Assembly: GCA_963995525.1 (NCBI GenBank)
Contig: OZ023205.1
Location: 51,598,738-51,662,737 of the forward strand
Source: Escarpia spicata
Taxonomy: Eukaryota; Annelida; Polychaeta; Sabellida; Siboglinidae
DNA: 64,000 nt
Direction of reading: 5' to 3'
Positions 7,830-57,230 of this stretch are shown one piece after another. The number at the start of each line of letters is the position of its first letter. Position 1 is the stretch's first letter. The notes under the pieces are model-generated. The model searched no databases and was not told the origin of the DNA. It worked only from the letters and a program-made list of their open reading frames with translations. The translations under genes and the position numbers were made by a program.

Positions 7830-8186
7830 CGTTTCAATTGTTTATCTGGGCGTGGCTCAGTCTTATCAAACCACAAGGGTGTATAATGTGACAAGGCAAC
7901 AGGAAGCAATGACACGTTATATTTTGTGTCCAAACATTTCATTTTAAAAAAACGCATATTATACATCAATGCATCTACACATGTATACATATATAATTGC
8001 ATAAAGAATAGTCCACACAGATTGGTAAGTCACACACTCATAAGCACCAATGATACCGTTTTATAAATTAAAGCAAACAACAATAAAACATGCACTGTAC
8101 CTATAATTAATGGACTACACTTCGTTTATTTATACGTGGCTCTTCTTATAGAGAACCCAAAGCTATATAATGTGTTGTTGCTCGCA
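7830..8186. other. 5' flank of the secreted-protein gene; no other gene seen
   Basis: AT-rich sequence directly upstream (minus strand) of the signal-peptide exon. It may hold the promoter. I see no clear TATA or CpG signature. Confidence 0.35.
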
Positions 8187-10672
8187 CGCATGGCGCACAC
8201 AGTGGAGCTTCACTGATGTCAACCTCGGCACGCACGGCGCACACAGTGGAGCTTCACTGATGTCAACCTCGGCACGCACGGCGCACACAGTGGAGCTTCA
8301 CTGATGTCAACCTCCGCCCGCACGGCGCACACAGTGGAGCTTCACTGATGTCAACCTCCGCCCGCACGGCACACACAGTGGAGCTTCACTGATGTCAACC
8401 TCGGCACGCACGGCGCACACAGTGGAGCTTCACTGATGTCAACCTCAGCACGCACGGCGCACACAGTGGAGCTTCACTGATGTCAACCTCGGCCCGCACG
8501 GCACACAGTGGAGCTTCACTGATGTCAACCTCGGCCCGCAAGGCACACAGTGGAGCTTCACTGATGTCAACCTCGGCACGCACGGCACACACAGTGGAGC
8601 TTCACTGATGTCAACCTCGGCACGCACGGCGCACACAGTGGAGCTTCACTGATGTCAACCTCGGCACGCACGGCGCACACAGTGGAGCTTCACTGATGTC
8701 AACCTCGGCACGCACGGCACACAGTGGAGCTTCACTGATGTCAACCTCGGCACGCACGGCGCACACAGTGGAGCTTCACTGATGTCAACCTCGGCACGCA
8801 CGGCGCACACAGTGGAGCTTCACTGATGTCAACCTCGGCACGCACGACGCACACAGTGGAGCTTCACTGATGTCAACCTCGGCACGCACGGCGCACACAG
8901 TGGAGCTTCACTGATGTCAACCTCGGCACGCACGGCACACAGTGGAGCTTCACTGATGTCAACCTCGGCACGCACGGCGCACACAGTGGAGCTTCACTGA
9001 TGTCAACCTCGGCACGCACGGCGCACACAGTGGAGCTTCACTGATGTCAACCTCGGCACGCACGGCGCACACAGTGGAGCTTCACTGATGTCAACCTCGG
9101 CACGCACGGCGCACACAGTGGAGCTTCACTGATGTCAACCTCGGCACGCACGGCGCACACAGTGGAGCTTCACTGATGTCAACCTCGGCACGCACGGCGC
9201 ACACAGTGGAGCTTCACTGATGTCAACCTCGGCACGCACGGCGCACACAGTGGAGCTTCACTGATGTCAACCTCGGCACGCACGGCGCACACAGTGGAGC
9301 TTCACTGATGTCAACCTCGGCACGCACGGCGCACACAGTGGAGCTTCACTGATGTCAACCTCGGCACGCACGGCGCACACAGTGGAGCTTCACTGATGTC
9401 AACCTCGGCACGCACGGCGCACACAGTGGAGCTTCACTGATGTCAACCTCGGCACGCACGGCGCACACAGTGGAGCTTCACTGATGTCAACCTCGGCACG
9501 CACGGCGCACACAGTGGAGCTTCACTGATGTCAACCTCGGCACGCACGGCGCACACAGTGGAGCTTCACTGATGTCAACCTCCGCCCGCACGGCACATAG
9601 TGGAGCTTCACTGATGTCAACCTCGGCACGCACGGCGCACATAGTGGAGCTTCACTGATGTCAACCTCGGCACGCACGGCGCACATAGTGGAGCTTCACT
9701 GATGTCAACCTCGGCACGCACGGCGCATATAGTGGAGCTTCACTGATGTCAACCTCGGCACGCACGGCGCACACAGTGGAGCTTCACTGATGTCAACCTC
9801 GGCACGCACGGCACACACAGTGGAGCTTCACTGATGTCAACCTCGGCACGCACGGCGCACACAGTGGAGCTTCACTAATGTCAACCTCGGCACGCATGGC
9901 ACACAGTGGAGCTTCACTGATGTCAACCTCGGCACGCATGGCACACACAGTGGAGCTTCACTGATGTCAACCTCGGCACGCACGGCGCACACAGTGGAGC
10001 TTCACTGATGTCAACCTCGGCACGCACGGCACACACAGTGGAGCTTCACTGATGTCAACCTCGGCACGCACGGCGCACACAGTGGAGCTTCACTGATGTC
10101 AACCTCGGCACGCACGGCACACAGTGGAGCTTCACTGATGTCAACCTCGGCACGCATGGCGCACACAGTGGAGCTTCACTGATGTCAACCTCGGCACGCA
10201 TGGCACACACAGTGGAGCTTCACTGATGTCAACCTCGGCACGCACGGCGCACACAGTGGAGCTTCACTGATGTCAACCTCGGCACGCACGGCACACAGTG
10301 GAGCTTCACTGATGTCAACCTCGGCACGCATGGCGCACACAGTGGAGCTTCACTGATGTCAACCTCGGCACGCATGGCACACACAGTGGAGCTTCACTGA
10401 TGTCAACCTCGGCACGCACGGCGCACACAGTGGAGCTTCACTGATGTCAACCTCGGCACGCACGGCACACAGTGGAGCTTCACTGATGTCAACCTCGGCA
10501 CGCATGGCGCACACAGTGGAGCTTCACTGATGTCAACCTCGGCACGCACGGCACACAGTGGAGCTTCACTGATGTCAACCTCGGCACGCACGGCGCACAC
10601 AGTGGAGCTTCACTGATGTCAACCTCGGCACGCACGGCACACAGTGGAGCTTCACTGATGTCAACCTCGGCA
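8187..10672. repeat. 44-bp minisatellite, roughly 57 copies, derived from a MITE end
   Basis: The unit is about 44 bp, made of gtggagcttcactgatgtc, then aacctcggcacgcacgg, then cgcacaca. Many units are 42 bp through loss of a CG or CA dinucleotide. In the right third (about 9,880-10,640) the long and short variants alternate in a recurring order, a sign of higher-order amplification. Short open frames on the minus strand are by-products. The last unit runs into the body of a MITE of which the unit's first 30 bases are the terminal sequence. Confidence 0.95.
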
Positions 10673-10814
10673 CTGGGAAAAAGAGACCTGAAAAGCAGTG
10701 ACCGTATTACTAATTAGGCAGACTAACTTCCTATACTTCACCGTCCCAAATTATTATAAAAATAATTAATAAGGTGGTTGTATTACCGAGGTGACCATTA
10801 TGCGAGGTTCGACT
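10636..10814 (+). mobile_element. TA-type MITE whose left end seeded the minisatellite
   Basis: Starting with cagtggagcttcactgatg, the sequence follows the same internal order as the other MITE copies in the window: ctcggcactgggaaa, then gacctgaa, then cttatactt-like, then ggtgacc. It ends gaggttcgactg|ta, the inverted partner of its start. Confidence 0.75.
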
Positions 10815-30770: not shown

Positions 30771-30990
30771 TTACAGTAGGATGTGAACAGTTTGTTCTTC
30801 ATCCTCACTGAACAAAAGTGAAATCAGGCTGAGTAGAGTATTACTTCTGCTGTACAGATTTCTTTCTTTGGATTTCATATCCATTTCATCCGACAGATCA
30901 TTACAAATTGTATGTCCAAGATATTTATATTTTGTTGTAATATCTACCCTCTCGCACCCCCTTTTTTGACTAATCACGCCAGTTGTCATA
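30771..30990 (-). mobile_element. LINE reverse transcriptase fragment at the left border of the palindrome
   Basis: The minus strand reads KYKYLGHTICNDLSDEMDM and a following Tyr-Ser-Arg-Ser-Asn stretch, the region just after the RT palm in many LINEs. It stops at the palindrome border and has no mirror copy beyond 41,515. Confidence 0.7.
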
Positions 30991-31074
30991 ACTGAGCTCG
31001 CCTCATTTGCATAAATGACCTTATTTGGCAATTGTGGGCGTGGCCAGTTATGCTAAATGAGCTTAGAAAAGGAG

Positions 31075-31385
31075 TTCCGGTCCCATGTTAAAATATAGGA
31101 CATTTTTTCCCCATGTTAAAAGATAGGGAATTGTCCCCATGTTAAAGGATAGGAGCTATTATCGTAAAGGTATATGACGACTTTTTGAGTTGGAGGTATC
31201 AATTTACCCCAAATTATCCTCTGAAACCTGCCCTACCAATTTTCTCCATGTTAAAGGATAGGGAAATTTTCTCCATGATAGAAGATAGGCCATTATCTCC
31301 ATGTTAAAACATAGGAGCTTCCAATTTACCCCAAATTATCCTCTGAAATCTGTCCTACCAATTTTCTCCATGTTAAAGGATAGGG
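31075..31385. repeat. left iteron-like repeats of the palindrome
   Basis: About eight copies of a core near ccatgttaaaggatagg, spaced roughly 26-50 bp, alternate with longer shared phrases (aatttaccccaaattatcct). They are mirrored at about 41,110-41,425. Regular subterminal repeats like these are typical binding sites for element-encoded proteins. Confidence 0.8.
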
Positions 31386-31427
31386 AATTTTTGTTTGATT
31401 GTAGTGCGCGAGCGTGCGCACCCTGTA

Positions 31428-31735
31428 TGACGTCAGAAAACTGCTACGCGCAGTAATTTTGTACGCGAGGTGAGTTGGTTATACAGGTAGTGATTTGGTT
31501 AGCCATCGTTTTGAATTTGCGCACTTGAATATAATCCCACCATGTGACGCCATGGTACGCGCAGTAATTCTATACGCGAGGTGAGTTGGTCAAGCAGGTA
31601 GTGCTTTGGTTAGACCTTGTTTTGAACTTGCGCGTATGCAATGTAATCCCACCATATGAAGTCATACAGTGACGTCATTAAACTGGCACGCGCAGTAATT
31701 TATGCGCGAGGTGAGTTGGTCAAACATATCCTATA
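31428..31735 (+). promoter_or_regulatory. upstream repeats with CRE sites, gene A left arm
   Basis: Three repeats of about 110-130 bp share acgcgcagtaatt, gcgaggtgagttggt and 'taatcccaccat'. Perfect TGACGTCA (CRE/ATF) sites lie at 31,428-31,435 and 31,670-31,677; a third repeat has a degenerate version. Confidence 0.7.
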
Positions 31736-32004
31736 CATTTACATCTATCATATCATTTCTGGTAAGCATGCAGATCTACGACCTTCCCATCACTCTGTTT
31801 GTACATTTTTGCCTATAAAAGTCTCTTAGTACTTGCATACATCGACTGCTTCCTGTATTAACAAATAGGTGTTTGTCAATTTTGGCGTACTATTTCGTCT
31901 CTGTCACCAGCTCCGGCAACCAAACCAACCATAAATCATCCACTCTACAGTCTGTACCTATAATTTCTACTCTACAGTCCGTGATCTTTCGGCACATTTA
32001 CTAA

Positions 32005-32014
32005 CTATATAAGC
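32005..32014 (+). promoter_or_regulatory. TATA box of gene A, left arm
   Basis: ctatataagc lies 55-65 bp before the first ATG (32,069). The short leader is virus-like in its compactness. Mirror at 40,485-40,492. Confidence 0.65.
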
Positions 32015-32068
32015 GCGGTGTTTTGCCAATCGGACCGTTATTCGTATCACGACGACAGCACGGCTAAC

Positions 32069-32161
32069 ATGATGTTGAAGACACCCTATTACCGACCTCG
32101 CAATGCAGCAGACTCGAGCGACGAGCCGACGAGCCGACGAGCCGACCCATCATGCCGGTGA
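32069..32161 (+). CDS. overlapping upstream ORF before gene A
   Basis: The first ATG after the TATA box opens 30 codons (MMLKTPYYRPRNAADSS...) and stops at a TGA that overlaps the gene A start region (ATG at 32,152). The same arrangement is kept in the right arm. It may regulate translation by leaky scanning or reinitiation, or may simply be leader sequence. Confidence 0.35.
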   Translation: MMLKTPYYRPRNAADSSDEPTSRRADPSCR

Positions 32162-33622
32162 CCAACCGCCCTTCCGTGCCGTCGGAACCAGACGTCGTGG
32201 ACATCTCAACTCTAGAATCAACGGTAAGCCCCGACCCTGTTATCGAGGTCAGAGGTTTCCTTATCGACAAAGTACGCAAGCACACTCCCTTCTACATCGG
32301 GTGCAGATACTGCAAGAAGCGTATGAATGTCGACGATACGGGACATTTGCAATGCGAACGACATGGTTACGTGGCCTCTGACATGTATATTATGGTTCGA
32401 ACGAGCGCTGCCGATGAGGAGTCCCTACCGACTCCAAGACAACTACCACCATCGCAGAGACCCTTCACCTGCCCGGACTGTGGGTCGTCGTTCACACGGA
32501 AAAATAATAGCAAGCGCCACGTCACCGGCGGCAGTTGTACCTGCCGGAAGAGGGCGGCCGAGGACGCCGAGCTGGACGCGCTTGTGGTGAGTCATACTTT
32601 ATATTGCTTTACTATATACTTTCACCTAAAATCTCATTGCCCCGTGTCTATACTTTCCATAAAATGGCGTCCCCATAGCTTTCGTCAAAATGGCGTGCCT
32701 GTATATGTTTACTTCCGCTAAAACTTCGCCCCGTTTTATTATTTCCTATATGGTTGGACTCGTCTATTGCCTGTTAACATCCGGGTACATAATATTCTGT
32801 TACGTCTTTGCTTCCAAGATTATGGCTTCTCCTACGCTGTTCTTCATATCAACATCTGGCAACGTCTTAACTCCCTGTATGGTTGCGTCCACGGGTAATT
32901 TTTGTCGACAATTTATCTTTATGATCATACAACTTGTCACCTTACTTCCTATCACTTCTTGTCATTGTTTCCCACCGGTCTTTGTATCACCGTACTCTAA
33001 CAACGGTGTACTATTCCCATGCATTCTTTAATATTTTTAAATATTCTTGCAGAACTACATTGAAGGCCCGCTACCACCAAAGCGGCAACGAATGGTCTCT
33101 GTGTCGACAGAGACGATTAACGACAACGGGACACCATCGACACCAACTTCCGTTCCCAACGACGTCACAACTACCCACGCTGTCAATGTTACAACTTCTA
33201 ACCAGCCTGCCAACGTCACAACTTCCGCTCCTGACTTTGCTGGTCCGAACTTTACCATTGATTTCCCTGTGACCGAAATGAAGAAGACGCTGGCACGACA
33301 CATAGCAGGTGCCGTTGTTGAACTCTCAAGACGACAATGCCGTGGTTGCAAGATAGATCATCGTAGTAAATTTCATCACGATTGTATGATATCTGATGAC
33401 ATTCAAATTTGCATGCACTTTGACGAGGCTGTCGAGACCATTAATTCAATTGCAGTCGTGAAAGACTGTTTGAGTGTTTTGTTAGACGCAGGTGTGAAGC
33501 TATCCGACGTGACAGTCGAACAGTTGTGTAATATCAATACTTGGTTGCAAGAAACCTTTACGAAACAGTGGCGAAACACTATGAAACATATGGTTCTGGC
33601 AGTAATGGAGGGTGACCTGTAA
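32152..33622 (+). CDS. gene A, left arm: two-exon zinc-finger protein of the palindrome
   Basis: Exon 1 (32,152-32,586, 145 codons) ends at donor GTG|GTGAGT. Exon 2 (33,053-33,622) follows the acceptor ttcttgcag, phase 0, giving 334 residues. Residues 51-71 form a C-x2-C-x13-C-x2-H zinc-ribbon-like motif; 107-129 form a C2HC finger (C-x2-C-x12-H-x5-C). A basic PPKRQR stretch after the junction could be a nuclear signal. A Thr/Asn/Val-rich linker leads to a Cys/His cluster (C241, C244, H248, H254, C256) and a C-terminal domain that looks helical. The features suggest a nucleic-acid-binding protein. I do not recognise a named family. Start chosen because it is the first ATG in the long frame; an upstream ORF overlaps it. 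The right-arm copy is also open. Confidence 0.72.
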
Positions 33623-33737
33623 AGAACTTTATTTTGTCTTGTACACGATTAAACTTTGCAAGACTCTGTATCAATGTATAGTCTCTGGTTCTTGTAGTCA
33701 TGGAACGTGACATGTAAATACGTTTGTATTGTTCACG

Positions 33738-33743
33738 AATAAA
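33738..33743 (+). terminator. polyadenylation signal of gene A, left arm
   Basis: AATAAA within cacgaataaactgtgc, about 115 bp after the stop codon. Confidence 0.5.
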
Positions 33744-33839
33744 CTGTGCAAACCTTATCTTGTGTCTTCACTTAACCAAACTAAGACCAACGACTTCCAC
33801 GAATCAAACTTTGATTAGCGAGATGCACGAACCAATCAT

Positions 33840-34145
33840 TCAAACAAACTTGTCGGACAAACGAAACACCAAACACTTAGATCAACGAGTGACAAGAACC
33901 AAACTTGTCTGACAAATGAAATACCAAACACTTAGATCAACGAATGACAAGAACCAAACTTGTCGGACAAACGAAACACCAAACACTTAGACCAACGAGT
34001 GACAAGAACCAAACTTGTCAGACAAATGAAACACCAAACACTTAGACCAACGAGTGACAAGAACCAAACTTGTTGGACAAATGAAACACCAACATTTAGA
34101 TCAACGAGCGACAAGAACCAAACTTGTCGGACAAACGAAACACCA
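33840..34145. repeat. tandem array 1 of the left arm, about 60-bp unit
   Basis: About five units containing caaacttgtcggacaaacg, then aaacaccaaacacttag, then atcaacgagtgacaagaacc. The mirror is at about 37,420-37,730. It lies between gene A's poly(A) signal and gene B's promoter. Confidence 0.88.
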
Positions 34146-34159
34146 AACTTAACGGGTTA

Positions 34160-34520
34160 CTGCGTCAAATTCCACCAAAAGGGGGCAAATAGACGGTTTA
34201 TCGCGTGGGATTCCACTGGAATAGACGAGTTACCGCGTGAGATTCCACCGATTCGACTGAATTCCACCAGAATAGACGGGTTACCGCGTGAGATTCCACC
34301 AATTCGACGGAATTCCACCAGAATAGACGGGTTACCGCGTGAGATTCCACCAATTCGACGGAATTCAACAAGAATAGACAGGTTACCGCGTGAGATTCCA
34401 CCGACTCGACGGAATTCCACCAGAATAGAGGGGTTACCGTGTGAGATTCCACCGATTCGACGGAATTCCACTGCAATAGACGGTTTATCGCGTGAAATTC
34501 GACTGAGTTCACTGCAATAG
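34160..34520. repeat. tandem array 2 of the left arm, about 56-bp unit
   Basis: About seven units with gacgggttaccgcgtgagat, then tccaccgattcgacggaatt, then ccaccagaata. It is open in several frames on both strands, which produces repetitive but probably untranslated frames. The mirror at 37,110-37,390 has fewer units. Confidence 0.88.
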
Positions 34521-34525
34521 ACAGG

Positions 34526-34532
34526 TATAAAA
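34526..34532 (+). promoter_or_regulatory. TATA box of gene B, left arm
   Basis: TATAAAA about 75 bp before the ATG at 34,605. Mirror at 37,087-37,093. Confidence 0.6.
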
Positions 34533-34604
34533 CGAGTTGTACAAACCAAACTTCGACCGACGAGTTCCAAGAGCCATTCCGTTCTTTACATTTGAACAGT
34601 AAAC

Positions 34605-35672
34605 ATGTACATCATGAGCTTATCGACCCGTCTACCAGCTGCCAACAAGCCTACACCAGTATCACGGGCGGCCTTCCAGTGTCCCGATTGTAAGAGACAT
34701 TTCACACAGAAAGATAGCTGGAAACGACACATTGCCCACAGTCGCTATAGGTCATCAACAAACACTACGTCGACATGCACTACGTTGTTCAATTCACTTG
34801 TCCCGGCGCCCACTTCGACATCTGTGTCTTTGATCCCAGCAACAAACTCGACATTCTCGTCTCCATCTCAGGCGCCTACTACGACACATGTGACTCTGGC
34901 CTCAGCGACAAACTCGACATTCCCGTCTTCATCTCAGGTGACCATGGAGTATACAAAGAAGATGGCCCTGGTCGATCCCCGTATTTTGGAAAACATTCAA
35001 CCGCAACGTCCTTCGACTGCTAACCCTATCAAAAGTGTCGTGCAACGACTCGACAATGAAATGCAAAGCATATTAGAACGAAGTGATATAACGAGAGGGA
35101 AAAAGTTGTGTTGTATAACCAGGTATTGAGTCGGTACAACGATCTTTCCGACAAACGTATCCAAGAACCCGTGCGTGTGGTCATCGAAAAAATTCCCAGT
35201 GAAGGGGAAAACAAAATACAACATGCTAACGAAAATGAAGTCATCGAAAACGAAATCATCGACATCGTTCCAAAAAAGTATGAAGCAGAAAGCACTAAGA
35301 CTACTCGATAAAATGAAAAGTACCGTAAGGTGGAACGATCGCGGCGAGATGATGTACAGAAACAAGGTGGTACCCGGAAGTAACATTGTAGATCTCGTGA
35401 ACGACGTGTTGAGAAAACGGAAGTCGTTTGAACCGGTGTGATGGGAAACCTTCGCTCGTGATCTCAAGGACGTCAACACGCCAATGGATTTAGTTGGGAA
35501 CTCAGATCGTTGGCTTTACATGCAGACAGCGTCAGTGGACGACGATATATCAAAGGAAACCAGCATTCCATTTGACAGCGATCGTCAACGGAATCGTAGA
35601 CGACCTGCACCATTGCGGCGCGCAGCTCATTCGGTGACACCTTTGCAAATCACACGTTGGGAACCATATTAA
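34605..35672 (+). pseudogene. gene B, left arm (broken)
   Basis: The N-terminus has a C2H2-like finger (C-x2-C-x12-H-x2-H) followed by a Ser/Thr/Pro-rich linker. A conserved block then opens KMALVDPRIL, continues into an acidic helix-like stretch and LYNQVLSRY, and ends in a C-terminal domain with WNDRGEM, SNIVDLVNDVLRKRK and a following Trp-Glu-Thr-Phe segment. I have the impression that this two-block protein type recurs in invertebrate genomes, but I cannot name a function. In this arm a one-base loss near 35,094 shifts the frame, another shift lies near 35,275, and a TGA replaces Gly before the WETF segment near 35,440. No intron is apparent. Confidence 0.7.
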
Positions 35673-35752
35673 TATTACCGATTTACGACAAAAACAGGTT
35701 CGCGTGGGACATACAATTCACAGGAACAGTGTTCGAGAGAGATCATATGGGG

Positions 35753-35866
35753 AATATTCAATTAAAATCTTGTTTATGCTATGGATGAGTGAGTTTGTTT
35801 GTTTTTAGTTTTCATAGTCACCAAGACACAACTAACTTTTTCTCATTTCACTGACAACAAAGTTTC
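35753..35866. other. central spacer of the palindrome
   Basis: About 114 bp of non-repeated sequence (ttgtttatgctatggatgag onward) between the converging 3' ends of the two gene B copies. It would be the loop of the folded structure. Confidence 0.75.
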
Positions 35867-35944
35867 CTATATGATCTCTCTTGAACACTGTTCCTGTGGA
35901 TTGTATGTCCCACGCGAACCTGTTTTTGTCGTAAATCGGTAATA

Positions 35945-37013
35945 CTAATATGGTTCCCAACGTGTGATTTGCAAAGGTGTCACCGAATGAGCTGCGCGCC
36001 GCGATGATGCAGGTCGTCTACGATTCCGATGACGATCGCTGTCAAATGGAATGCTGGTTTCCTTTGATATATCGTCGTCCACTGACGCTGTCTGCATGTA
36101 AAGCCAACGATCTGAGTTCCCAGCTAAATCCATTGGCGTGTTGACGTCCTTGAGACCACGAGCGAAGGTTTCCCATCCCACCGGTTCAAACGACTTCCGT
36201 TTTCTCAACACGTCGTTCACGAGATCTACAATGTTACTTCCGGGTACCACCTTGTTTCTGTACATCATCTCGCCGCGATCGTTCCACCTGACGGTACTTT
36301 TCATTTTATCGAGTAGTCTTCGTGCTTTCTGCTCGATAGTTTTTGTTTTGGTACGCTGTCGATGATTTCGTTTTCGACGCTCTCCTTTTCGACGACTTCA
36401 TTTTCGTTAGCAGGCTGTACTTTGTTTTCCCCTTCACTGGGAATTTTTTCGATGACCACACGCACGGGTTCTTGGATACGTTTGTCGGAAAGATCGTTGT
36501 ACCGACTCAATACCTGGTTATACAACACAACTTTTTCCCTCTCGTGTATATCACTTTGCATTTCATTGTCGAGTCACTGCAAGACACTTTCGATAGGGTT
36601 AGCAGTCGAAGGACGTTGCGGTTGAATGTTTTCCAAAATACGGGGATCGACCAGGGCCATCTTCTTTGTATACTCCATGGTCACCTGAGATGAAGACGGG
36701 AATGTCGAGTTTGTCGCTGAGGCCAGAGTCACATGTGTCGTAGTAGGCGCCTGAGATGGAGACGAGAATGTCGAGTTTGTTGCTGGGATCAAAGACACAG
36801 ATGTCGAAGTGGGCGCCGGGACAAGTTAATTGACCAACGTAGTGCCTGTCGACGTAGTGTTTGTTGATGACCTACAGCGACTGTGGGCAATGTGTCGTTT
36901 CCAGCTATCTTTCTGTGTGAAATGTCTATTACAATCGGGGCACTGGAAGGCCGCCCGTGATACTGGTGTAGGCTTGTTGGCTGGTAGACGGGTCGATAAG
37001 CTCATGATGTACG
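35945..37013 (-). pseudogene. gene B, right arm (broken by different lesions)
   Basis: Mirror of the left-arm gene. Here the C-terminal domain is open (GW in place of the left arm's stop) and the Glu-Arg-Glu-Lys segment before LYNQVLSRY is in frame. However, TAA (near 36,827) and TGA (near 36,573) interrupt the linker and the helix block, and a 12-bp deletion lies near 36,560. The two arms share few lesions, so the ancestor was probably intact when the inversion arose. Confidence 0.7.
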
Positions 37014-37945
37014 TGTTTACTGTTCAAATGTAAAGAACGGAATGGCTCTTGGAATTCGTCGGTCGAAGTTTGGTTTGTACAACTCGTTTTATACCTGTCT
37101 ATTGCAGTGGACTCAGTTGAATTTCACGTGATAAACCGTCTATTGCAGTGGAATTCCGTCGAATCGGTGGAATCTCACACGGTAACCCGTCTATTCTGGT
37201 GGAATTCCGTCGAATCGGTGGAATCTCACGCGGTAACCCGTCTATTCTGGTGGAATTCCGTCGAATTGGTGTAATCTCACGCGGTAACCCGTCTATTCTG
37301 GTGGAATTCAGTCGAATCGGTGGAATCTCACGCGGTAACCCGTCTATTCCAGTGGAATCCCACGCGATAAACCGTCTATTTGCCCCCTTTTGGTGGAATT
37401 TGACGCAGTAACCCGTTAAGTTTGGTGTTTCGTTTGTCCGACAAGTTTGGTTCTTGTCGCTCGTTGATCTAAGTGTTGGTGTTTCATTTATCCAACAAGT
37501 TTGGTTCTTGTCACTCGTTGGTCTAAGTGTTTGGTGTTTCATTTGTCTGACAAGTTTGGTTCTTGTCACTCGTTGGTCTAAGTGTTTGGTGTTTCGTTTG
37601 TCCGACAAGTTTGGTTCTTGTCATTCGTTGATCTAAGTGTTTGGTATTTCATTTGTCAGACAAGTTTGGTTCTTGTCACTCGTTGATCTAAGTGTTTGGT
37701 GTTTCGTTTGTCCGACAAGTTTGTTTGAATGATTGGTTCGTGCATCTCGCTAATCAAAGTTTGATTCGTGGAAGTCGTTGGTCTTAGTTTGGTTAAGTGA
37801 AGACACAAGATAAGGTTTGCACAGTTTATTCGTGAACAATACAAACGTATTTACATGTCACGTTCCATGACTACAAGAACCAGAGACTATACATTGATAC
37901 AGAGTCTTGCAAAGTTTAATCGTGTACAAGACAAAATAAAGTTCT

Positions 37946-40346
37946 TTACAGGTCACCCTCCATTACTGCCAGAACCATATGTTTCATAGTGTTTCGCCAC
38001 TGTTTCGTAAAGGTTTCTTGCAACCAAGTATTGATATTACACAACTGTTCGACTGTCACGTCGGATAGCTTCACACCTGCGTCTAACAAAACACTCAAAC
38101 AGTCTTTCACGACTGCAATTGAATTAATGGTCTCGACAGCCTCGTCAAAGTGCATGCAAATTTGAATGTCATCAGATATCATACAATCGTGATGAAATTT
38201 ACTACGATGATCTATCTTGCAACCACGGCATTGTCGTCTTGAGAGTTCAACAACGGCACCTGCTATGTGTCGTGCCAGCGTCTTCTTCATTTCGGTCACA
38301 GGGAAATCAATGGTAAAGTTCGGACCAGCAAAGTCAGGAGCGGAAGTTGTGACGTTGGCAGGCTGGTTAGAAGTTGTAACATTGACAGCGTGGGTAGTTG
38401 TGACGTCGTTGGGAACGGAAGTTGGTGTCGATGGTGTCCCGTTGTCGTTAATCGTCTCTGTCGACACAGAGACCATTCGTTGCCGCTTTGGTGGTAGCGG
38501 GCCTTCAATGTAGTTCTGCAAGAATATTTAAAAATATTAAAGAATGCATGGGAATAGTACACCGTTGTTAGAGTACGGTGATACAAAGACCGGTGGGAAA
38601 CAATGACAAGAAGTGATAGGAAGTAAGGTGACAAGTTGTATGATCATAAAGTTAAATTGTCGACAAAAATTACCCGTGGACGTAACCATACAGGGAGTTA
38701 AGACGTTGCCAGATGTTGATATGAAGAACAGCGTAGGAGAAGCCATAATCTTGGAAGCAAAGACGTTCTTACCTTAAGTTCTTACCTTAAGAACGGTCAA
38801 TAATTGCCCAAGTTGAGCACTGAGACCGTCTCAAGGTTAGTTTTCTGTAGTGGTATTCCATTGTCTATTGATTTTGCTGCTATTGTTGTTGCTGTTGGCG
38901 TTATTGCTATTTTTTTCTTTATCTTGTCTTTTCCGGTTTGCCTAGTCTCTAGGCTCGATTGTGTGCGTGCGTGCATGCATGCGTGCGTGTGTATGTGTTA
39001 AGTTTTATCTCGTTGAGAGCAATCACATCGTATTCTTGCGCAATGGTGTATAGTTCATCATATTTGCTAAGTATCGAGTTGTCAACGTTGGTGTAGTATG
39101 TCCTTAGTGCATGCCGTGCTTTGCTGTTTCTTTGTGGTGCTGTGTTTCTATGTGCATGTGCATTGTGGTCCCGGTTTTCTACTGGGTCTCTATGATTTCG
39201 CTTCGGTAGATTTTGTAGGTCTTGTTTGGATTGTCTTCTCTTCTCCGCATCAGCTGAGCCTGTAAGTTTTTTGACTCAGCTCTCTGTCTTGGTGTCAAGT
39301 CTGGTCTAATGAACACTGTGTTGTACCTCTCTTCTGAGCTGTTTCGGATTTCTTTGGCTTTACTTAGTACCTTCTTTTTGTCGTTGATGTTTCTCATGAC
39401 GGCAAGGATCATTCTGGGTTTGCTATGGTCTGGCTGGCCAATTCGAGTAACTGATTCTGGTGCGATATCTAGCTTTAGTCATGTTGTCATCATCTGTTTG
39501 ACTTCGTGTAAATCTTGGCCGTTCTCTTTCATACCATGGATGATTAGATTTAGTTTTTTTGTCATGATTTGTTCTCTTTCTGTTATTTCTTCTTTCACTG
39601 CTGTGGTTAGGTCTTGGTTGGCTTGTGTTGTCATTGTTGGATGATTGACTGTAGTGTTTGTCTGATGTTGTATCAGCTTGCTGACCTCTTGTAACAGAAT
39701 ATTATGTACCCGGATGTTAACAGGCAATAGACGAGTCCAACCATATAGGAAATAATAAAACGGGGCGAAGTTTTAGCGGAAGTAAACATATAGAGGCACG
39801 CCATTTTGACGAAAGCTATGGGGACGCCATTTTATGGAAAGTATAGACACGGGGCAATGAGATTTTAGGTGAAAGTATAATTATAGTAAAGCAATATAAA
39901 GTATGACTCACCACAAGCGCGTCCAGCTCGGCGTCCTCGGCCGCCCTCTTCCGGCGGGTACAACTGCCGCCGGTGACGTGGCGCTTGCTATTATTTTTCC
40001 ATGTGAACGACGACCCACAGTCCGGGCAGGTGAAGGGTCTCTGCGATGGTGGTAGTTGTCTTGGAGTCGGTAGGGACTCCTCACCGGCAGCGCTCGTTCG
40101 AACCATAATATACATGTCAGAGGCCACGTAACCATGTCGTTCGCATTGCAAATGTACCGTATCGTCGACATTCATACGCTTCTTGCAGTATCTGCACCCG
40201 ATGTAGAAGGGAGTGTGCTTGCGTACTTTGTCGATAAGGAAACCTCTGACCTCGATAACAGGGTCGGGGCTTACCGTTGATTCTAGAATTGAGATGTCCA
40301 CGACGTCTGGTTCCGACGGCACGGAAGGGCGGTTGGTCACCGGCAT
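37946..40346 (-). CDS. gene A, right arm
   Basis: Exons 40,346-39,912 and 38,515-37,946 have the same junctions and length as the left-arm copy (334 residues). Both zinc motifs are kept, with a few substitutions (Arg to Trp within the C2HC finger, one Cys to Arg after it, Gly to Val before the second zinc-ribbon Cys). The intron is longer than in the left arm because of a retroelement insertion at about 38,769-39,698. Confidence 0.72.
38769..39698 (-). mobile_element. LINE fragment inserted in gene A intron, right arm only
   Basis: The minus strand reads a coiled ORF1-like segment with NLIIHGMKE, then FIRPDLTPRQRAE, then an endonuclease start with YTNVDNSILSKYDEL and ALNEIK near 39,005, running into a GCAT/GCGT-type simple repeat. 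The left arm lacks it: its uninterrupted sequence is gcaaagacgtaacagaat (reverse complement). The copy ends inside the endonuclease, which is odd for LINEs, normally truncated at the 5' end. Confidence 0.75.
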
Positions 40347-41109
40347 GATGGGTCGGCTCGTCGGCTCGTCGGCTCGTCGCTCGAGTCTGCTGCATTGCGA
40401 GGTCGGTAATAGGGTGTCTTCAACATCATGTTAGCCGTGCTGTCGTCGTGATACGAATATCGGTCCGATTGGCAAAACACCGCGCTTATATAGTTAGTAA
40501 ATGTGCCGAAAGATCACGGACTGTAGAGTAGAAATTATAGGTACAGACTGTAGAGTGGATGATTTATGGTTGGTTTGGTTGCCGGAGCTGGTGACAGAGA
40601 CGAAATAGTACGCCAAAATTGACAAACACCTATTTGTTAATACAGGAAGCAGTCGATGTATGCAAGTAATAAGAGACTTTTATAGGAAAAAATGTATAAA
40701 CAGAGTGATGGGAATGTCGTAGATCTGCATGCTAACCAGAAATGATATGATAGATGTAAATGTATAGGATATGTTTGACCAACTCACCTCGCGCATAAAT
40801 TACTGCGCGTGCCAGTTTAATGACGTCACTGTATGACTTCATATGGTGGGATTACATTGCATACGCGCAAGTTCAAAACAAGGTCTAACCAAAGCACTAC
40901 CTGCTTGACCAACTCACCTCGCGTATAGAATTACTGCGCGTACCATGGCGTCACATGGTGGGATTACATTCAAGTGCGCAAATTCAAAACGATGGCTAAC
41001 CAAATCACTACCTGTATAACCAACTCACCTCGCGTACAAAATTACTGCGCGTAGCAGTTTTCTGACGTCATACAGGGTGCGCACGCTCGCGCACTACAAT
41101 CAAACAAAC

Positions 41110-41425
41110 AAACAAAAATTCCCTATCCTTTAACATGGAGAAAATTGGTAGGACAGATTTCAGAGGATAATTTGGGGTAAATTGGAAGCTCCTATGTTTT
41201 AACATGGAGATAATGGCCTATCTTCTATCATTGAGAAAATTTCCCTATCCTTTAACATGGAGAAAATTGGTAGGGCAGGTTTCAGAGGATAATTTGGGGT
41301 AAATTGATACCTCCAACTCAAAAAGTCGTCGAATACCTTTACGATAATAGCTCCTATCCTTTAATATGGGGAAAATTCTCTATCTTTTAACATGAAAAAA
41401 AATGTCCTATATTTTAACATGGGAC
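41110..41425. repeat. right iteron-like repeats of the palindrome
   Basis: Mirror image of 31,075-31,385: ctatcctttaacatgg cores spaced as in the left arm. Confidence 0.8.
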
Positions 41426-41545
41426 CGGAACTACTTTGCAAAGCTCATTTGCATAACTAGCCATGCCCAGAATTGCCAAATAAGGTCATTTATGCAAATG
41501 AGGCGAGCTCATTTGCATAATTATTATCCTTTCACCTGGAGGAAG

Positions 41546-41588
41546 CCTGGAGGAAATCCCTAAATTTTAACATGGGATTTCCTCCAGG
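41546..41588. other. perfect 15-bp stem hairpin beyond the right end of the palindrome
   Basis: cctggaggaaatccc (41,546-41,560) pairs with gggatttcctccagg (41,574-41,588) around a 13-nt loop that itself contains the iteron-like taaattttaacat. Confidence 0.8.
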
Positions 41589-41811
41589 GCAATCCAAGCG
41601 TAACTCGTACTTAACCTGACATACTACTTACGTACATAGACATACAGTGCACAGAAAGAAAGACCATTGCGGAACACCTAGAGAGATATGGAGAGTACTA
41701 GTAAGGAAAGCAGAAGAAACTACCGAGTGATGTGGACACCACTCTGCGAAGGAGAAAGGGAGCGAAGTAAAATGACATAGAACAAGTGTTATTGCATGGT
41801 GTAGCCCTAAT

Positions 41812-55394: not shown

Positions 55395-57230
55395 AAAACA
55401 GAGCAGTTACAGTTCACACGCAGTTCTTGGACACATCAAGACATGGTGGAAACAACAGAGCAGTTACAGTACACGTGCAGTTCTTGGACACATCAAGACA
55501 TGGTGGAAACAACAGAGCAGTTACAGTACACGCGCCGTTCTTGGACACATCAAGACATGGTGGAAACAACAGAGCAGTTACAGTTCACGCGCAGTTCTTG
55601 GACACATCAAGACATGGTGGAAACAACAGAGCAGTTACAGTACACGTGCAGTTCTTGGACACATCAAGACATGGTGGAAACAACAGAGCAGTTACAGTAC
55701 ACGCGCAGTTCTTGGACACATCAAGACATGGTGGAAACAACAGAGCAGTTACAGTACACGCGCAGTTCTTGGACACATCAAGACATGGTGGAAACAATAG
55801 AGCAGTTACAGTACACGGGCCGTTCTTGGACACATCAAGACATGGTGGAAACAACAGAGCAGTTACAGTTCACACGCAGTTCTTGGACACATCAAGACAT
55901 GGTGGAAACAACAGATCAGTTACAGTACACGCGCAGTTCTTGGACACATCAAGACATGGTGAAAACAACAGAGCAGTTACAGTACACGCGCAGTTCTTGG
56001 ACACATCAAGACATGGTGGAAACAACAGAGCAGTTACAGTACACGTGCAGTTCTTGGACACATCAAGACATGGTGGAAACAACAGAGCAGTTACAGTACA
56101 CGTGCAGTTCTTGGACACATCAAGACATGGTGGAAACAACAGATCAGTTACAGTACACGCGCAGTTCTTGGACACATCAAGACATGGTGAAAACAACAGA
56201 GCAGTTACAGTACACGGGGCAGTTCTTGGACACATCAAGACATGGTGGAAACAACAGAGCAGTTACAGTACACGCGCAGTTCTTGGACACATCAAGACAT
56301 GGTGGAAACAACAGAGCAGTTACAGTACACGCGCCGTTCTTGGACACATCAAGACATGGTGGAAACAACAGAGCAGTTACAGTACACGCGCAGTTCTTGG
56401 ACACATCAAGACATAGTGGAAACAACAGAACAGTTACAGTACACGCGCAGTTCTTGGACACATCAAGACATGGTGGAAACAACAGAGCAGTTACAGTACA
56501 CGCGCAGTTCTTGGACACATCAAGACATGGTGGAAACAACAGAGCAGTTACAGTACACGCGCCGTTCTTGGACACATCAAGACATGGTGGAAACAACAGA
56601 GCAGTTACAGTTCACGCGCAGTTCTTGGACACATCAAGACATGGTGGAAACAACAGATCAGTTACAGTACACGCGCAGTTCTTGGACACATCAAGACATG
56701 GTGAAAACAACAGAGCAGTTACAGTACACGCGCAGTTCTTGGACACATCAAGACATGGTGGAAACAACAGATCAGTTACAGTACACGCGCAGTTCTTGGA
56801 CACATCAAGACATGGTGGAAACAACAGAGCAGCTACAGTACACGCGCAGTTCTTGGACACATCAAGACATGATGGAAACAACAGAGCAGTTACAGTACAC
56901 GCGCAGTTCTTGGACACATCAAGACAGGGTGGAAACAACAGAGCAGTTACAGTACACGCGCAGTTCTTGGACACATCAAGACATGGTGGAAACAACAGAG
57001 CAGTTACAGTACACACGTAGTTCTTGGACACATCAAGACAGGGTGGAAACAACAGAGCAGTTACAGTACACGCGCAGTTCTTGGACACATCAAGACAGGG
57101 TGGAAACAACAGAGCAGTTACAGTACACACGTAGTTCTTGGACACATCAAGACAGGGTGGAAACAACAGAGCAGTTACAGTACACACGTAGTTCTTGGAC
57201 ACATCAAGACAGGGTGGAAACAACAGCATT
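55395..57230. repeat. 57-bp minisatellite, about 32 copies
   Basis: Unit gagcagttacagtacacgcg, then cagttcttggacacatc, then aagacatggtggaaacaaca. Since 57 is a multiple of three, long frames stay open on both strands (up to 525 codons), but with no start context, domain or splice evidence. A one-base insertion near 56,217 shifts the phase. The last units share an 'agacagggtgg' variant, which suggests expansion from the right end. Confidence 0.95.

What the first reader, a model, noticed from the sequence alone, without database searches (positions are those of the whole stretch)
30993..41515. 10.5-kb near-palindromic element with two converging genes per arm
Two 4.7-kb inverted arms face each other across about 114 bp. 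Each arm is packed like a small viral genome: iterons, CRE repeats, TATA box, zinc-finger gene A, tandem arrays, TATA box, gene B. No transposase, integrase or polymerase is visible. It could be a head-to-head dimer of a linear element, a genome with giant inverted ends, or an element mobilised by another. I know no named class with this content.
Basis: partly seen in the sequence, partly recalled or inferred. Interest (0 to 1): 0.88.

Follow-up and report, generated by a model that had tools for sequence, protein, structure and literature searches.

The report
Palindromic defective Maverick (Polinton) virus-like transposon
This 10.6-kb mirror-image element is an old, broken relative of Mavericks, virus-like jumping genes of animals: it keeps one half of such an element twice, head to head, and lacks the genes for copying, inserting and packaging itself.

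Summary
The inverted arms are real: 98.44% identical over 4,694 columns, 108 bp apart, with a 926-bp LINE-like insertion in the right arm. The right end is 41628, not 41515; the left end lacks ~114 bp. It is a non-autonomous Maverick/Polinton: its right end reads AGTAGT, and relatives in this genome have AGTAGT (or one-base variant) ends with 6-bp target duplications, the published Maverick signature (PMC8097293, passages). Genes A and B are Maverick genes: a capsid-bearing Maverick on C6 with duplication CCCAGC holds terminus, partial A, B in one half and protease, capsid, integrase, ATPase, partial A, terminus in the other. The window arm has the order of the first half and turns back just past B. 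Converging gene-B pairs recur: 14, against 1 diverging and 1 same-strand, among 150 scored loci. Arms of one element were sisters in the four single-locus cases tested. Most likely: symmetric, defective genomes formed by copy-back in protein-primed replication and inserted by enzymes supplied in trans; both steps are inferred. No palindrome with B in both arms was seen with both ends and its target duplication. New variant of a known kind; this copy is a fossil.

The parts
30990..35754 (+). left arm (about 114 bp of the terminus missing)
   Evidence: missing end judged against right end 41628
35755..35862 (.). centre between the arms (108 bp); matches the stretch of a C6 Maverick just past the gene B stop
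35863..41628 (-). right arm with intact AGTAGT terminus at 41628 (flank TACGTA)
32152..32586 (+). gene A exon 1, left arm (weak C2H2-like match); splice predicted, not tested
33053..33622 (+). gene A exon 2, left arm
39912..40346 (-). gene A exon 1, right arm
37946..38515 (-). gene A exon 2, right arm
34605..35672 (+). gene B, left arm: C2H2-like finger (below Pfam cut-off) plus conserved Maverick protein, interrupted
35945..37013 (-). gene B, right arm, interrupted
31082..31315 (+). 26-28-bp iteron-like repeats, left (right: 41191-41424)
31390..31730 (+). repeats with TGACGTCA words upstream of gene A
   Evidence: (blocks I23, I24)
33845..34148 (+). 55-bp tandem array (right arm 37420-37723)
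34188..34500 (+). 32/51-bp tandem array (right arm 37119-37380)
38767..39692 (-). 926-bp secondary insertion with ORF 39179-39412 (LINE ORF1-like by recall)
   Evidence: no Pfam hit over cut-off

Best explanation
A non-autonomous, near-palindromic derivative of a Maverick (Polinton). One half of a Maverick, from the AGTAGT terminus through accessory gene A and gene B, was copied out and back, so the daughter has that half at both ends and nothing of the half with protease, capsid genes, integrase and ATPase. Proposed course: (1) protein-primed replication starts at one end; (2) just past gene B the new strand turns back on its own complement and is copied back to the same end (copy-back), giving a symmetric linear genome with two good origins; (3) PolB and integrase of other Mavericks replicate and insert it with a 6-bp target duplication; (4) replication through annealed arms keeps them alike until insertion; (5) at this locus the copy then aged: a LINE-like insertion, broken B frames, loss of ~114 bp at the left end. 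Shown: Maverick ends, target duplications in relatives, match of the arm with half of a capsid-bearing Maverick, recurrence of the layout, sister arms. Inferred: steps 1 to 4.
For: Ends AGTAGT in the window's right end and 6-bp duplications around relatives; published Maverick end motif (AGT)2 and 6-bp TSD (PMC8097293, passages). C6 Maverick 40288493-40300690 with CCCAGC at both sides: terminus, partial A, B on one side; protease, MCP, core, minor capsid, integrase, ATPase, partial A, terminus on the other. A model of an MCP homologue matches Sputnik, PBCV-1 and mavirus capsids (best E 2.5e-15); integrase rve and Chromo over cut-off on C2; Pox_A32-type ATPase over cut-off on C6. B lies within 4 kb past MCP on the other strand in 21 of 52 MCP loci. 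14 converging B pairs against 1 diverging and 1 same-strand (p = 2.6e-7, or 3.2e-6 with two duplicated pairs merged). Target duplications enclose the long-armed elements C10a and C13b, so those arms preceded insertion. Arms of one element are sisters in WIN, C13b, C12b and C1c. The window centre follows C6 to 40292094 and turns back at 40292007, before the protease ORF, whose far end is 40292275.
Against: No palindrome with B in both arms was seen with both ends and its target duplication: WIN and C8:22.2 each lack one end, and the ends of C1c and of the other converging pairs were not fetched or not found; C10a and C13b, which have both ends, carry one B and only B remnants. No Maverick with PolB, A, B and these ends was seen whole; the C6 Maverick has no PolB (tblastn of its three fetched pieces), PolB was scored at one place in the genome and lies beside another element on C8. 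The C6 gene A copies are partial. Many relatives carry a repeat-rich spacer past B, so palindromes may descend from a non-autonomous lineage by TIR extension and not straight from a full Maverick. Arm divergence is uneven (0 of 800 columns over 32990-33789, 36 of 773 over 34990-35789), which points to later conversion between arms.
Confidence: 0.8

Rival explanations
1. TIR expansion by recombination: an ordinary non-autonomous Maverick with short TIRs gained ever longer TIRs by unequal exchange or conversion between its ends, until both genes lay inside them. This is a rival for the origin of the symmetry, not for the kinship with Mavericks.
For: A graded series exists: C13a one arm with ~108-bp TIR; C3a ~0.5 kb; C11 about 0.9 kb or more; C10a and C12b arms cover A with one B; WIN and C8:22.2 arms cover A and B.
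Against: Does not by itself explain why copies part from the C6 Maverick just past gene B, though a shared ancestor would.
Confidence: 0.35
2. Host-made inverted duplication: a single-arm insertion was duplicated head to head by the host's repair.
For: The host genome does duplicate such loci (C10 cluster).
Against: Target duplications enclose the long-armed elements C10a and C13b; 14 converging against 1 diverging B pair; arms of C10a, C10b and C13b both reach the element's own ends.
Confidence: 0.04
3. A separate viral or transposon class (parvovirus-like dimer, foldback element, new virus) unrelated to Mavericks.
For: No polymerase, integrase or capsid in the window; gene A exon 2 found one protein homologue only.
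Against: Shared ends, and A and B inside a capsid-bearing Maverick with target duplication.
Confidence: 0.03
4. Assembly artefact.
For: Palindromes are prone to misassembly; no reads were seen.
Against: Arms differ by 73 substitutions and a one-sided 926-bp insertion; converging pairs recur at other loci.
Confidence: 0.03

Closest known systems
Mavericks / Polintons (PMC8097293, passages; PMC4028283, two passages)
   Same: AGTAGT ends, 6-bp target duplications in relatives, genes A and B found inside a capsid-, integrase- and ATPase-bearing element
   Different: the window has no PolB, integrase, ATPase, protease or capsid gene; arms of 4.7 kb against published vertebrate TIRs of 46-1,447 bp; gene A has a predicted intron where intact vertebrate Mavericks have none; in C6 the ATPase lies with the integrase module, not with PolB as in vertebrates
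Symmetric defective adenovirus genomes (recalled from Daniell 1976, not read; the PMC5033970 passages seen speak only of left-end DNA in incomplete particles)
   Same: one genome end repeated at both ends; protein-primed kin
   Different: these are integrated in an animal genome at many loci
MITE-like and foldback transposons with long inverted repeats (recalled)
   Same: mostly inverted repeat, dependent on enzymes in trans
   Different: arms hold two protein genes and Maverick ends
Adintoviruses (recalled)
   Same: Maverick-like gene set in the kin elements
   Different: the window lacks the defining genes; gene B found no relative in two IMG/VR scans

Membership tests
Maverick/Polinton, autonomous | protein-primed PolB | tested here: not met
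   tblastn of three PolB ORFs of L032 against the window: none; PF03175 scored in the genome only at C1:49796132 (91 of 246 candidates scored)
Maverick/Polinton, autonomous | RVE integrase, capsid, protease, ATPase | tested here: not met
   C2 integrase, MCP, protease, core and penton-like proteins against the window: only the gene-B part (residues 1-82) of the fused C2 ORF matched; C6 ATPase against the window: none
Maverick-derived non-autonomous element | AGTAGT // ACTACT ends | tested here: met
   right end at 41628; left end of this copy is missing
Maverick-derived non-autonomous element | 6-bp target duplication | tested here: inconclusive
   not testable in the window; of 8 independent kin with both ends seen, 6 perfect (one, C2 E1, only if its left end lost a base) and 2 with 5 of 6 letters (C10b, a duplicate of C10a, left out)
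Maverick-derived non-autonomous element | sequence kinship with a capsid- and integrase-bearing Maverick of the same genome | tested here: met
   C6 and C2 elements
Maverick-derived non-autonomous element | mobilisation in trans | not testable with these tools
   inferred from copies and target duplications
Adenovirus-like symmetric defective genome (works like) | turn-back junction with short single-copy loop | tested here: inconclusive
   108-bp centre, turning points C6:40292094 and 40292007; gaps between the B genes of the 14 converging pairs are 410-3,189 bp, and a collapsed longer loop cannot be excluded
Parvovirus-type genome | Rep/NS1 and capsid genes | tested here: not met
   Pfam scan of the A and B proteins and of ORF 39179-39412 gave only weak zinc-finger and chance-level hits; other ORFs were not scanned

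The most novel reading that the evidence does not exclude
The palindromes are a self-maintaining satellite lineage of Mavericks: they keep A (finger protein) and B (finger fused to a conserved Maverick protein) under selection and use them to win replication from, or interfere with, the helper, as defective interfering genomes do; two identical ends give two origins and make the genome snap into a hairpin.
Probability: 0.22. Interest if true: 0.8.

Novelty: new variant of a known kind. Interest (0 to 1): 0.55.

Why it matters
How Mavericks replicate is, to my knowledge (recalled), inferred and not watched. A family of integrated, symmetric, defective copies is the trace one expects of protein-primed, strand-displacement copying, and arm pairs can be compared within each copy. 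It also shows that Maverick derivatives may carry none of the hallmark enzymes and so be missed, and it makes a Maverick satellite hypothesis testable in a living animal (probably a vestimentiferan tubeworm).

Tried and rejected
Phage records and IMG/VR scans with one gene B protein and with an alignment: nothing. Pfam on A and B: weak hits only. The gene B fold (mean pLDDT 68.6) had no viral structural match at E <= 0.001. MCP profile against solved sequences: one match at E 0.22. Parvovirus-like dimer, foldback and host inverted duplication were considered and set aside for the reasons in the rivals. In one search a query labelled C6pro was the antisense of gene B; its hits are not protease and were dropped; the C2 protease query gave none. 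A first look at selection was replaced by one with off-frame controls. On checking, the arm identity proved to include the unmatched centre and was recomputed; ATPase and PolB were first tested against the window. Genome searches for gene A protein, for the end pattern and for the PolB protein did not complete, so A and the ends were not counted genome-wide and helper number is unknown.
Full report
Observation. The window is C1:51598738-51662737 of a 1.06-Gb genome. Two arms of about 4.7 kb face each other across 108 bp. Arms alone align at 98.44% over 4,694 columns with 73 mismatches, with a 926-bp insertion in the right arm only. Divergence is uneven: no mismatch in 800 columns over 32990-33789, 36 in 773 over 34990-35789 in gene B. 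The right end is 41628, where the strand reads ...ACATACTACT then flank TACGTA; the left arm stops at 30990 without the matching ~114 bp.

Genes. Gene A (predicted exons 32152-32586 and 33053-33622, GT-AG, 334 aa) has a weak C2H2 match; its exon 2 found one database homologue among 180 candidates. Gene B has a C2H2-like finger (23.8 bits, cut-off 25.2) followed by a protein whose C2 copy (208 aa) has 63 homologues, up to 63% identical at 99% coverage. Gene A is open in both arms, gene B in neither. In frame, dN/dS medians are 0.52 for A exon 2 and 0.43 for the B C-terminus, against 0.81 and 1.05, and 1.19 and 0.97, in the other frames; A exon 1 0.52 against 0.71 and 1.33; the finger part of B is inconclusive (0.69 against 0.86 and 0.46), and one frame of the intron control also falls to 0.62 (others 0.98, 0.97), so the signal is modest. 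Pairs are not independent. I read this as selection between insertions and decay afterwards.

Relatives. The left arm gave 180 matches from 39 scored of 4,142 candidates. I fetched 17 loci (20 stretches). Both ends with the motif (or a one-base variant) were found within the stretch in 7 of 17 (C10a, C10b, C13b, C13a, C3a, C10c, C11); in the other 10 one clear end or none was seen. Target duplications: C10a CATATA (C10b is its segmental duplicate), C13a TACGTT, C3a GTTGTT, C11 ATCCTG perfect; C13b CACGAT/AACGAT and C10c CACATC/CACATT at 5 of 6. C2 E1 (ACTGCA if one base of its left end is lost) and the C6 Maverick (CCCAGC) came later. These match the Maverick end motif (AGT)2//(ACT)2 and 6-bp duplication described in PMC8097293 (passages read).

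Link to full Mavericks. On C2 an element with this right end carries an integrase with chromodomain (rve 49.9 bits, Chromo 29.2), a penton-like protein, a core protein, a capsid protein and a protease-like ORF (penton, protease and core names are recalled; protease and core had no credible Pfam hit, the penton-like ORF was not scanned). The capsid protein has 109 scored matches in the genome among 2,848 candidates. A model of one homologue, from 31 aligned, matches Sputnik, PBCV-1 and mavirus capsids (best E 2.5e-15; mean pLDDT 62.0). On C6, read in separate pieces, the order is terminus, iterons, gene A (its start only), B, then on the other strand protease, capsid, core, minor capsid, integrase, ATPase (Pox_A32 28.2 bits, cut-off 22.8), gene A (start and end, middle gone), terminus. 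It has no PolB. The position of B is compatible with that of PZ in vertebrate Mavericks as listed in PMC8097293; homology to PZ was not tested. Of 52 capsid loci of 74% identity or more (of 109 rows), 21 have a scored gene B within 4 kb downstream on the other strand, 4 have B elsewhere within 8 kb, and 27 have none among the 150 scored.

The palindrome. The window's left arm follows the C6 Maverick to 40292094, past the B stop at 40291950, and then turns back at 40292007; the protease ORF reaches down to 40292275. Thus the window has the content of one half of a Maverick twice. Among 150 scored B loci there are 14 converging pairs within 9 kb, 1 diverging and 1 same-strand; p = 2.6e-7 against random orientation, 3.2e-6 after merging two pairs that look duplicated. 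Both B frames lack stops in 8 of the 14 pairs as matched. Only one of the 14 was opened: C8:22.21-22.23 Mb is 98.2% inverted over 4,402 bp of its flanks and 97.6% self-inverted over its middle 3.5 kb, has stretches like gene A and gene B in both arms, and one AGTAGT end; no end was found at the other side, where ~124 bp lack a partner, as in the window. Other copies keep A in both arms but only one B (C10a, C12b), or have short TIRs. Trees put the two arms of WIN (A 100/100, B 98/94), C13b, C12b and C1c together; in the C10 duplicates left arms group and right arms group, as duplication after insertion predicts.

Mechanism. I favour copy-back during protein-primed replication, with helper PolB and integrase. 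Symmetric defective adenovirus genomes are my recalled parallel; the passages of PMC5033970 that I read mention left-end DNA in incomplete particles, not palindromes. TIR expansion is the main rival. Against me: no B-B palindrome was seen with both ends and a target duplication. Helper supply is inferred: PolB was seen at C1:49.796 Mb and in pieces on C8 near 5.806-5.809 Mb.

Host. The best named capsid homologues are from Ridgeia piscesae and Lamellibrachia satsuma, so the host is probably a vestimentiferan tubeworm; this is inference.

Print search. Five searches on Polinton or Maverick with inverted repeats, non-autonomous, internal deletion, target duplication or palindromic listed 8 of 8, 20 of 158, 15 of 64, 12 of 40 and 12 of 33 papers; no listed title or abstract start describes palindromic Mavericks. 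Only PMC8097293, PMC4028283, PMC6431247 and PMC5033970 were opened, by passages. The library lacks most subscription papers, so this is weak evidence of absence.

Noticed in passing
window 30990 and C8:22213931 (L038): Two palindromes lack about 114 and 124 bp at exactly one end while the other end is intact; C10a and C13b have both ends.
   Followed up: partly
window 32990-33789 versus 34990-35789: Arms identical over 800 columns around gene A exon 2 but 3.9-5.4% apart in gene B, as if converted between arms.
   Followed up: partly
window 32152-32589 and kin: Gene A exon 1 differs more between copies (median 0.178) than the intron (0.080) or exon 2 (0.060), perhaps exchange or fast change of the finger part.
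   Followed up: no
G000:C10:15.18-15.81 Mb: Block with about ten copies of the element at steps of roughly 43-62 kb, with wider gaps of about 100-120 kb in the middle: apparently a segmental duplication that carries the long-armed element along.
   Followed up: partly
L030 8203-9357 (C2): N-terminus of a diverged gene B fused in frame to the integrase in a degraded Maverick, the middle apparently deleted.
   Followed up: partly
window 34605-34943: Gene B carries an N-terminal finger before the part where the 13 aligned database homologues (of 63) begin; the search's length limits favour short homologues, so this may not be special.
   Followed up: no
G000 genome: Large Maverick load: 2,848 first-look candidates for the capsid protein (109 scored), with many rows at 56-66% identity to the C2 copy.
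   Followed up: no
window 8184-10673 and 55397-57226: Long tandem arrays of 44-bp (57 copies) and 57-bp (32 copies) units outside the element.
   Followed up: no
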